The translations under genes and the position numbers were made by a program. Shown here one piece after another: positions 18,199 through 36,873 of a DNA stretch of 64,000 nt. This DNA is from Eubacterium sp. (GTDB lineage: Bacteria; Bacillota; Clostridia; Lachnospirales; Lachnospiraceae), in NCBI GenBank assembly GCA_017433825.1, contig JAFRGL010000013.1, forward strand, positions 124,001 to 188,000. Direction: 5' to 3'. Positions within the stretch are counted from its first letter, which is position 1. Every line of letters starts with the position of its first letter. Under the pieces are notes generated by a model that saw only the letters and a list, made by a program, of their open reading frames with translations, was not told where the DNA came from and ran no database searches.

Positions 18199-18426
18199 CC
18201 CGGCAGAAAGAGCAGGCCGGGATTGGAGTGAAGCCATGAAAAATACAGCTGTCAGAACCGGCTGATGAGGGGCAAAAAGTTGCTTCGGAGCAATTCTTTT
18301 TGAGTCCTGCTGAGGCGACTTTTGATCAACAAAAGTCGTCGAATCAGGACGGTACCCGAAATCAGACGGTTTTGCAGCTGTATATTTTTCAGGCTGAAAC
18401 GACCTGCCGGCCGTTCTTCTGCCGGG
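18199..18426. ncRNA. Structured intergenic element, copy A (candidate novel RNA)
   Basis: This 228-nt stretch fills most of the 336-bp gap between tmcAL and the PFL gene. It folds into a closing helix (CCCGGCAGAA 18199-18208 with 18417-18426, plus GGCCGG 18215-18220 with 18407-18412), a second helix (18238-18251 with 18375-18390, TACAGCTG core), a 12-bp hairpin (18273-18302) and a two-part hairpin (18304-18350). A homologous element at 36622-36838 keeps every helix with compensatory base changes and shares long unpaired blocks. The transcribed strand is not known. Read leftward, both copies follow a protein gene's stop codon by 35-46 bases. I do not recognise a known RNA family. Confidence 0.75.
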
Positions 18427-36286: not shown

Positions 36287-36610
36287 CATAACCGGTTGGG
36301 GGTTCTCCCCATTTCCCGCTTTTTGTGTTCAGGGGAGAATATTTTCTCTGTGCAACCAGCTGGGTCTCTCCCCTTTTCTCTTGTTTTCACGTCCGGGGGA
36401 GAAGTCTTCACTGTTTAACCGGCTGGGCTTCTATCCTTTTTTCTGATTTTCATGCTTAGGGGAGAATTCTATCCATGCATGACCGCCTGATTTTCTCCCC
36501 TTTCCTTGTTTTTTCACGTCCGGGGGAGAAACTTTTCATTGTTTGAAAGTCTCTTCTTCTACTCCAGGTTCTCTTTTTGCCCGCTGGGGGAGAAAATCTT
36601 CACTGTATAG
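36287..36610. repeat. Five tandem 63-64 bp units with TTCTCCCC/GGGGAGAA arms
   Basis: The motif GGGGA begins at 36332, 36396, 36459, 36523 and 36587, giving periods of 64, 63, 64 and 64 bases. Each unit has a left arm TTCTCCCC (or a variant such as CTCTCCCC or TTCTATCC), a T-rich spacer of about 21 bases, a right arm GGGGAGAA, and a tail like CTTCACTGTTTAACCGGCTGG. Units have diverged but spacing is kept. No reading frame runs through it. It is a phased tandem inverted-repeat array, and it is not a CRISPR. Confidence 0.85.
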
Positions 36611-36621
36611 CCGGGTATTCA

Positions 36622-36838
36622 GCAGAAGGAAGGCCGGGATTGGAGCAAACCGCTAAAAAACGCCGCTGTCGGGAAAGACTGATGAGGGACGAAAAGTTGC
36701 TTCCAAGCAATTCTTTTCGAGGCCTGCTGAGGCGGGTTTTGATCACAAAACCCGTTGAATCAGGCCGGTGCCCGAAATCAGGATTTCCTGCAGCGGCATG
36801 TTTTTTACGGAGAAGCGACCTGCCGGCCGTTCTTCTGC
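36622..36838. ncRNA. Structured intergenic element, copy B (candidate novel RNA)
   Basis: This 217-nt element is homologous to 18199-18426. It keeps the closing helix (GCAGAA 36622-36627 with 36833-36838; GGCCGG with CCGGCC), the second helix (AAAAAAC GCCGCTG 36655-36668 with CAGCGGC AT GTTTTTT 36791-36806), a hairpin CGAAAAG TTGCT TCCA AGCAA TT CTTTTCG (36690-36719) and a two-part hairpin GGCCTG...CGGGTTTTG ATCA CAAAACCCG...CAGGCC (36721-36766). Paired bases differ from copy A in a compensatory way. It lies between the tandem array and the stop codon of the hydrolase gene. Confidence 0.75.
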
Positions 36839-36873
36839 AGAATCGTTTATTTCAGTTTGATGTATTTTCTCTT

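What the first reader, a model, noticed from the sequence alone, without database searches (positions are those of the whole stretch)
18199..18426. Two dispersed ~220-nt structured elements with compensatory base changes: candidate new RNA family (copy A)
Copies at 18199-18426 and 36622-36838 share four helices. Paired bases change together. TACAGCTG/CAGCTGTA becomes GCCGCTG/CAGCGGC. CGACTTTTG/CAAAAGTCG becomes CGGGTTTTG/CAAAACCCG. GTCCTG/CAGGAC becomes GGCCTG/CAGGCC. CAAAAAG/CTTTTTG becomes CGAAAAG/CTTTTCG. Long unpaired blocks (GGGATTGGAG, CTGAGG, CCCGAAATCAG, CGACCTG) are unchanged. This is the mark of selection on structure. I recognise no known riboswitch or RNA family, and neither copy encodes protein.
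Basis: partly seen in the sequence, partly recalled or inferred. Interest (0 to 1): 0.82.

Follow-up and report, generated by a model that had tools for sequence, protein, structure and literature searches.

The report
Giant self-pairing intergenic DNA repeats
The two elements are copies of a large family of hairpin-shaped DNA repeats scattered between genes of gut bacteria; their matching base changes look like the signature of a new RNA but are better explained by one arm of the DNA hairpin being copied from the other, so they are a warning case for RNA discovery.

Summary
Copies A (18200-18425) and B (36619-36841) belong to a dispersed family with 24 counted places in this Lachnospiraceae genome and 23-59 copies in two Faecalicatena species and two other genera. 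A covariance model finds it in at least 24 of 299 family genomes. Copy A has no Rfam, phage or plasmid match. A three-way-junction tip and internal loops are conserved. Stems are hypervariable: in one genome 53 of 53 inner stems differ and outer arms are near random, yet they pair almost perfectly. All 57 model pairs covary. The pairing does not look RNA-like. In the rods G-T and A-C mismatches are about equally rare (86 vs 69; 31 vs 38). Orientation relative to genes is random. Close pairs are always divergent (16 of 16). One copy has both arms of one type and an inverted tip, the footprint of a DNA template switch. Best reading: giant REP/REPIN-like palindromes acting as folded single-stranded DNA, with loops selected and stems kept complementary by DNA-templated correction. 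In other genera many carry a CGTC/CCA border like CGTC-REPs. Mobilisation by a RAYT transposase is suggested weakly. Transcription was not testable.

The parts
18200..18425 (+). Copy A, whole element (226 bp, between two convergent genes)
   Evidence: Terminal inverted repeats CCGGCAGAA..TTCTGCCGG; alignment A1; absent from the orthologous gap of same-genus genome G001
36619..36841 (+). Copy B, whole element (223 bp, second subfamily)
   Evidence: Alignment A1; covariance match 36654-36807, 172.6 bits; absent from the orthologous gap of G001
18200..18220 (+). Copy A 5' arm of the outer helix
   Evidence: Pairs with 18405-18425 in the fold
18405..18425 (+). Copy A 3' arm of the outer helix
   Evidence: Fold
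18221..18233 (+). Copy A lower internal loop, 5' side (ATTGGAG nearly invariant)
   Evidence: Nearly invariant positions 23-29 of A1
18394..18404 (+). Copy A lower internal loop, 3' side (..GAAACGACC)
   Evidence: Conserved in A1; similar GAARYGACC in G032 copies, by eye
18237..18391 (+). Copy A core (stem, three-way junction, two hairpins) matched by covariance model R1
   Evidence: 171.4 bits
18273..18302 (+). Copy A hairpin hp1
   Evidence: Fold and pair counts
18304..18350 (+). Copy A hairpin hp2 with ATCA loop and CTGAGG/CGAATCAG internal loop
   Evidence: Fold and pair counts; ATCA loop among the most conserved columns in Faecalicatena
36654..36807 (+). Copy B core matched by covariance model R1
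   Evidence: 172.6 bits

Best explanation
The finding is two copies of a dispersed, non-coding, REP/REPIN-like palindromic DNA repeat of Lachnospiraceae, each unit 225 to roughly 400 bp, sometimes in divergent pairs. SHOWN: it is multi-copy and intergenic, and it is rare between divergent genes. A common core (three-way junction, two hairpins, fixed internal loops) is conserved while the stem sequences are close to free. INFERRED: it acts and spreads as folded (single-stranded) DNA, recognised by its loops, mismatches and shape, perhaps by a HUH/Y1 enzyme of the TnpA-REP (RAYT) type. Its long stems are kept complementary mainly by DNA-level arm-to-arm copying (template switching at quasipalindromes). 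That copying makes base pairs change together without RNA-level selection on each pair.
For: Copy number and spread: 24 places in G000, 23 and 27 in two Faecalicatena, 59 in G032 and 28 in G021, 24 of 299 family genomes. Both window copies are missing from orthologous gaps in G001. Stem drift: in 58 G032 copies outer arms have median identity 0.575 against 0.55 shuffled, and 53 of 53 inner stems compared are distinct. Mismatch symmetry in 82 copies: outer arms 86 GT/69 AC, core stem 31/38; tRNA control 24 GU/0 AC. Template-switch footprint: 1 of 59 G032 copies (L076 = L249) has 98/98 paired arms, both of 5' type, with the tip inverted. Five orthologous comparisons between two species show 16-33 double Watson-Crick changes each, clustered in 2 of 5. 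16 of 16 close pairs in five genomes are divergent. Context of 76 copies: 41 tandem, 26 convergent, 5 divergent, 4 at edges; orientation 49:44. Border: [CT]GTC at the 3' end in 41 of 59 G032 copies (background 7/236) and CCA at the 5' end in 40 of 59 (background 31/236). RAYT association: 12 of 24 vs 43 of 275.
Against: No element was found in the fetched flanks of 15 Y1-transposase loci. Twelve of 24 element-positive genomes have no match to the RAYT model at E<=1e-30, including G178 with 23 copies. That model was built from element-positive genomes; without the five of them in the sample the association is p=0.027, and phylogeny is not corrected. hp1/hp2 lean to G-U (6:1; 20:8, p=0.036 for hp2), and CM-aligned cores show 74 GU/19 AC and 84/25. 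A terminator control for strand bias was uninformative (GT 7, AC 6). Direct template-switch evidence is one copy; double changes are not clustered in 3 of 5 orthologous comparisons. hp2 varies less than the other stems (36 distinct of 53, median identity 0.7). The CGTC/CCA border was not seen at the ends of the window's own subfamily.
Confidence: 0.58

Rival explanations
1. A new family of structured non-coding RNA transcribed from the + strand, with compensatory changes caused by selection on RNA pairing.
For: 57 of 57 model pairs covary; the + strand folds more stably in all four copies folded whole (-107.6 to -120.4 against -89.8 to -101.3 kcal/mol); hp1/hp2 and the CM-aligned cores lean to G-U; loops are conserved over genera.
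Against: Rod mismatches are strand-symmetric, with an A-C excess in G032 (74 AC/42 GT sporadic); orientation relative to genes is random; about 100-bp nearly perfect rods are unlikely under pair-by-pair selection; one template-switch footprint. No expression data were available.
Confidence: 0.2
2. A MITE of a classical DNA transposon (terminal inverted repeats, cut and paste), the secondary structure being incidental.
For: Terminal inverted repeats CCGGCAGAA in the window's subfamily; copies of copy A's subfamily that are 87-93% identical to it; internally deleted derivatives L016/L017.
Against: Bases outside the ends are complementary rather than directly repeated in several copies (by eye); no transposase domain among the 25 commonest of 174 Pfam families in 95 neighbouring ORFs (the other families were not listed).
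Confidence: 0.12
3. A host-function site (bidirectional terminator, mRNA 3'-end protector or nucleoid-protein site) maintained at each locus by purifying selection.
For: Copies in G032 have nearly saturated stems but intact loops, as if each were selected in place; location mostly 3' of genes.
Against: Patchy distribution (24 of 299, a lower bound) and gain or loss between same-genus genomes.
Confidence: 0.25

Closest known systems
CGTC-tagged REPs (Di Nocera et al. 2013, PMC3733652; abstract, passages and section 6 read)
   Same: In many G032 and some Faecalicatena copies: CGTC/TGTC at one end and CCA at the other; paired units in inverted orientation with the tagged ends outside (their HH dimers); intergenic, tandem/convergent bias; RAYTs in some host genomes but not beside the repeats.
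   Different: Stems there are 8-9 bp with 4-5 nt loops; here 225-400 nt with a three-way junction, fixed internal loops and freely varying stems. Which end carries the tag on which strand could not be compared (figure not held). The window's subfamily lacks the tag. The main text has no occurrence of Firmicutes or Clostridi-.
GTAG REPs, BIMEs and REPINs with RAYT/TnpA-REP (PMC8266576 and PMC6006769, passages; PMC3116915 and PMC2817692, search listing only)
   Same: Inverted pairs of hairpins, imperfect in some families; loops, bulges and mismatches matter for enzyme recognition; gene loss with surviving repeats is suspected in print.
   Different: GTAG lies at the 5' end of only 4 and the 3' end of 0 of 112 copies (no background computed); units about ten-fold larger; no element found near the RAYT genes.
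Template-switch-maintained hairpins (Monttinen and Loytynoja 2022, PMC8794818; abstract and passages)
   Same: Multi-base compensatory changes, restoration of perfect stems, loop inversion as the strongest footprint.
   Different: There rRNA and microRNA genes, inverted loops up to 7-8 nt in the rRNA cases; here an inverted tip of roughly 90 nt in a multi-copy DNA repeat.

Membership tests
Rfam RNA family | Match at or above a curated gathering score | tested here: not met
   Only a tRNA in the window; nothing in eight further element-bearing loci; best E-value around copy A 1.6
Functional structured RNA | Strand-specific wobble (G-U much more than A-C) in helices | tested here: inconclusive
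   Absent in rods and core stem, weak in hp1/hp2 and present in CM-aligned cores; tRNA control 24:0
Functional structured RNA | Transcribed | not testable with these tools
   No RNA-seq available
REP/REPIN/BIME | Dispersed intergenic palindromes in many copies | tested here: met
REP/REPIN/BIME | Pairs in inverted orientation | tested here: met
   16 of 16 neighbours within 1.2 kb in five genomes are (-,+); most copies are single
REP/REPIN/BIME | Short unit of 20-40 bp | tested here: not met
   About 225-400 nt
GTAG REP | GTAG foot | tested here: not met
   4 of 112 copies at the 5' end, 0 at the 3' end; reverse complement 2 and 5
CGTC REP | CGTC/TGTC tag at one end and CCA tail at the other | tested here: inconclusive
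   G032: 41/59 and 40/59, both 37; Faecalicatena: 17/53 and 16/53, both 9; not seen at the ends of the window's subfamily; strand order in the published consensus not readable
RAYT-mobilised element | RAYT gene flanked by the repeat (REPtron) | tested here: not met
   0 matches around 15 Y1 loci, flanks up to about 4 kb and shorter at contig ends
RAYT-mobilised element | RAYT present in genomes that carry the repeat | tested here: inconclusive
   12 of 24 vs 43 of 275; 7 of 19 vs 43 of 275, p=0.027, without the genomes that supplied the query
Classical MITE | Target-site duplication | tested here: inconclusive
   Flanks inspected by eye only; empty sites differ too much

The most novel reading that the evidence does not exclude
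A class of giant mobile DNA hairpins in which only loops and junctions are under selection, while about 100-bp stems drift freely and are kept almost perfectly complementary by constant arm-to-arm DNA copying. This gives genome-wide, statistically overwhelming 'RNA-like' covariation that owes little or nothing to RNA. It would be a natural counter-example to the rule that covariation proves a functional RNA.
Probability: 0.4. Interest if true: 0.82.

Novelty: new variant of a known kind. Interest (0 to 1): 0.62.

Why it matters
Covariation is the usual proof of structured RNA, and one screen of human microbiomes lists 250 palindromic candidates among 3161 (PMC8040213, passages). A family with up to 59 counted copies in a genome, near-random stems, fixed loops and a template-switch footprint lets one measure how much covariation DNA mechanics alone can produce. 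It also extends REP-like repeats to Lachnospiraceae with units about ten times the usual size, and would test whether RAYT-type enzymes can read hairpins by loops and shape alone.

Tried and rejected
Hammerhead or kink-turn core (suggested by CTGATGAG..CGAAA): considered by eye only; in other subfamilies that part is a variable stem, so dropped. Known Rfam families: none. Phage or plasmid origin: copy A has no blastn match in either collection, and one exact tip pattern, which fits only part of the family, had 0 matches in viral contigs. Spread beyond Lachnospiraceae: a looser pattern hit 11 stretches in genome contigs, ten from three Lachnospiraceae genomes and one from a Rokuibacteriota MAG contig; the last has no R2 match and is taken as chance. 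Autonomous element with its own gene: in 95 neighbouring ORFs the 25 commonest Pfam families (of 174) are metabolic, regulatory or ATPase domains, none a transposase. A gene between one pair in F. orotica has no counterpart in the orthologous F. faecalis pair. Repeats around RAYT genes: no R2 match in 15 loci; inverted repeats in five of them were not pursued. Terminator hairpins as a strand-bias control: only 13 informative cases. Earlier tRNA counts: two found none, one only 2 tRNAs. ARAGORN's brackets may hide mismatches, though pair totals look complete (20-26 per tRNA). A gapped pattern in the window gave 0. L249 (=L076) was left out; the degenerate sixth orthologous pair was left out; duplicate rows were dropped (one search also drops gappy rows).

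Full report
WHAT IS THERE. With the terminal inverted repeats included they span 18200-18425 and 36619-36841. Copy A as a blastn query finds 15 full or contig-cut copies (itself and B included) plus two internally deleted ones in the window's genome. A covariance model from 14 copies (R1) also finds a second, more distant subfamily. Together 24 places were counted in G000, including two contig-end fragments and one deleted copy. Several contigs of the assembly end inside the element, as expected for a repeat.

STRUCTURE. Each unit is one long rod closed by a tip: a three-way junction with two hairpins (hp1; hp2 with an ATCA loop), a conserved CTGAGG/GAATCAG internal loop, and a second conserved internal loop lower in the rod. 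In other genera the rod is longer: about 290 nt to a recurrent border, with local pairing continuing to 350-450 nt in some copies. Pair counts: 41 distinct rows from ten genomes, 57 of 57 pairs with double changes, covariation score 0.881 against 0.203 shuffled. For Faecalicatena matches, 55 distinct rows, 57 of 57, score 0.963 against 0.217. Rows were aligned to the model, which favours its structure; sliding partners by 1-3 columns drops the score to 0.10-0.18.

DISTRIBUTION. R1 found 10 of 299 family genomes. The better model R2 found 24 of 299, and 1 of 391 in a class-wide draw, the window's own genome. These large searches score only 7-10 candidates per genome and are lower bounds: G021, missed, has 28 copies in a sensitive search. 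Sensitive counts: 23 in F. faecalis (G178) and 27 in F. orotica (G705); 59 in G032, 28 in G021, 4 in G001, positives 3 of 37. The names rest on equal contig lengths. Blastn with copy A in 61 genomes, the own one included, gave only two weak matches outside G000 (E=2.6e-4 in G001, 6.8e-4 in G010). Copy A has no blastn match in phages or plasmids, and one exact pattern none in viral contigs.

MOBILITY AND CONTEXT. In same-genus G001 the genes flanking copy A abut, without the element. The gap of copy B is 78 bp there against 629 bp in the window. Of 76 copies examined, 41 lie between tandem genes, 26 between convergent, 5 between divergent, and 4 at edges; four cores overlapped a called ORF. Element orientation relative to genes whose 3' end faces it is 44 same to 49 opposite. 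ORFs here are simple longest-frame calls. Sixteen of 16 neighbouring pairs within 1.2 kb in five genomes are divergent.

RNA OR DNA? Three results speak against pair-by-pair RNA selection. First, mismatches inside good stems, found by an alignment that treats all mismatches alike, are strand-symmetric: 82 copies, outer arms 86 GT/69 AC (p=0.20), core stem 31/38; an earlier, overlapping subset of 36 gave 19/21. In G032 the raw counts are 34 GT/104 AC and, without recurrent positions, 42 GT/74 AC (other filter), the reverse of what a + strand RNA would show. Twenty tRNAs (11 of them from E. coli) show 24 GU and no AC, with the caveat that the program's brackets may hide mismatches. Results the other way: hp1 6:1, hp2 20:8 (p=0.036), and CM-aligned cores 74:19 and 84:25, perhaps partly because the model rewards G-U. 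Second, in G032 the outer arms of 58 copies are hardly more alike than shuffled sequence (median 0.575 vs 0.55; 4 of 1653 pairs reach 0.75) and 53 of 53 inner stems are distinct (hp1 43 and hp2 36 of 53), yet non-Watson-Crick cells outside recurrent loop positions are 172 of 4677. Keeping every pair of such long rods by selection in every copy is implausible; copying one arm from the other is not. Third, copy L076 (refetched as L249) has 98 of 98 arm positions paired, carries the 5'-type loop sequence on both arms, and its tip is inverted relative to the arms. That is what an inter-strand template switch produces, and Monttinen and Loytynoja name compensatory change with loop inversion as the strongest possible support for that mechanism (PMC8794818, passages). 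It is 1 of 59 copies.

ORTHOLOGUES. At least three loci are shared by F. faecalis and F. orotica among those fetched. In five compared units 16-33 pairs changed on both sides to another Watson-Crick pair, against 4-11 single changes to GU, 2-7 to AC and 6-16 to other mismatches. Double changes are clustered in two of five (p=0.008, 0.016), not in three (p=0.085, 0.31, 0.59). Third-position divergence of the flanking genes is 0.28-0.47, so paired double changes (14-25% of pairs) accumulate at a sizeable fraction of the near-neutral rate. In nine comparisons of paralogues within G000, double Watson-Crick changes (0-5 each) are about as frequent as single ones (sequences reused).

WHAT MOVES IT. 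A Pfam Y1_Tnp search of 30 genomes showed, besides IS200-like enzymes, RAYT-like proteins in open frames of about 200-330 aa in 10 of 13 element-positive genomes and in 1 of 17 others (G010; a partial one in G033 not counted), sorted by eye. Nine were scanned against NCBIfam: nine hit the REP-associated tyrosine transposase model, one above its cut-off. In 299 genomes a model of six such proteins matches, at E<=1e-30, 12 of 24 element-positive and 43 of 275 other genomes (p=2e-4). The six rows came from element-positive genomes, five of them in the sample, so the fairer figure is 7 of 19 against 43 of 275, p=0.027, uncorrected for phylogeny. At E<=1e-80 it is 8 of 24 against 9 of 275, and 3 of 19 against 9 of 275 (p=0.035) without those five. 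No element lies in the fetched flanks of 15 Y1 loci. RAYT mobilisation is therefore a lead only. It fits the literature: TnpA-REP binds single-stranded hairpins, with loops, bulges and mismatches contributing (PMC8266576, passages), and loss of the gene with surviving repeats is suspected (PMC6006769, passages).

KINSHIP. In G032, 41 of 59 copies carry CGTC or TGTC at the 3' end of the main rod and 40 of 59 CCA at its 5' end (backgrounds 7/236 and 31/236); in Faecalicatena 17 and 16 of 53 (backgrounds 10/209 and 18/209). CGTC REPs have a CGTC tag (TGTC or CCTC in many), a tail mostly CCA, and predominantly head-head dimers with tags outside (PMC3733652). The resemblance is close, but the units are about ten times larger, the window's subfamily lacks the border, in some copies pairing continues beyond it, and strand order could not be compared. 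I call it a new variant of the REP/REPIN kind, not a member of the CGTC family. Seven literature searches, six of them on repeats, hairpins or structured RNAs, listed no paper whose title or abstract start describes it; that is no proof of absence.

Noticed in passing
window 36332-36531: A 63-bp tandem repeat (3.1 copies, GGGGAGAA..TTTCTCCCC) just upstream of copy B; it lies in the same stretch missing from G001.
   Followed up: partly
L160:1463-2029 (F. orotica): An acetyltransferase-like gene (named by eye from its sequence) sits between two divergent elements; the orthologous pair in F. faecalis (L166) has no gene there.
   Followed up: partly
L103:1527-1580 and L104:5830-5870, about: The spacer between paired elements in the window's genome is itself a GC-rich palindrome (GCTTTG..CCCGGGCCGGG..CAAAGC).
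   Followed up: no
G032 copies, offsets +9 and +14 from core start: A T-T mismatch (46 of 58) and an A-C mismatch (35 of 58) recur at fixed places of the otherwise freely varying stem.
   Followed up: no
L212-L225: Lachnospiraceae carry several divergent RAYT-like protein groups; eight of nine scanned score below the NCBIfam cut-off.
   Followed up: partly
L016, L017: Two copies share the same internal deletion (query 32-155 missing), so a short form may itself have spread.
   Followed up: no
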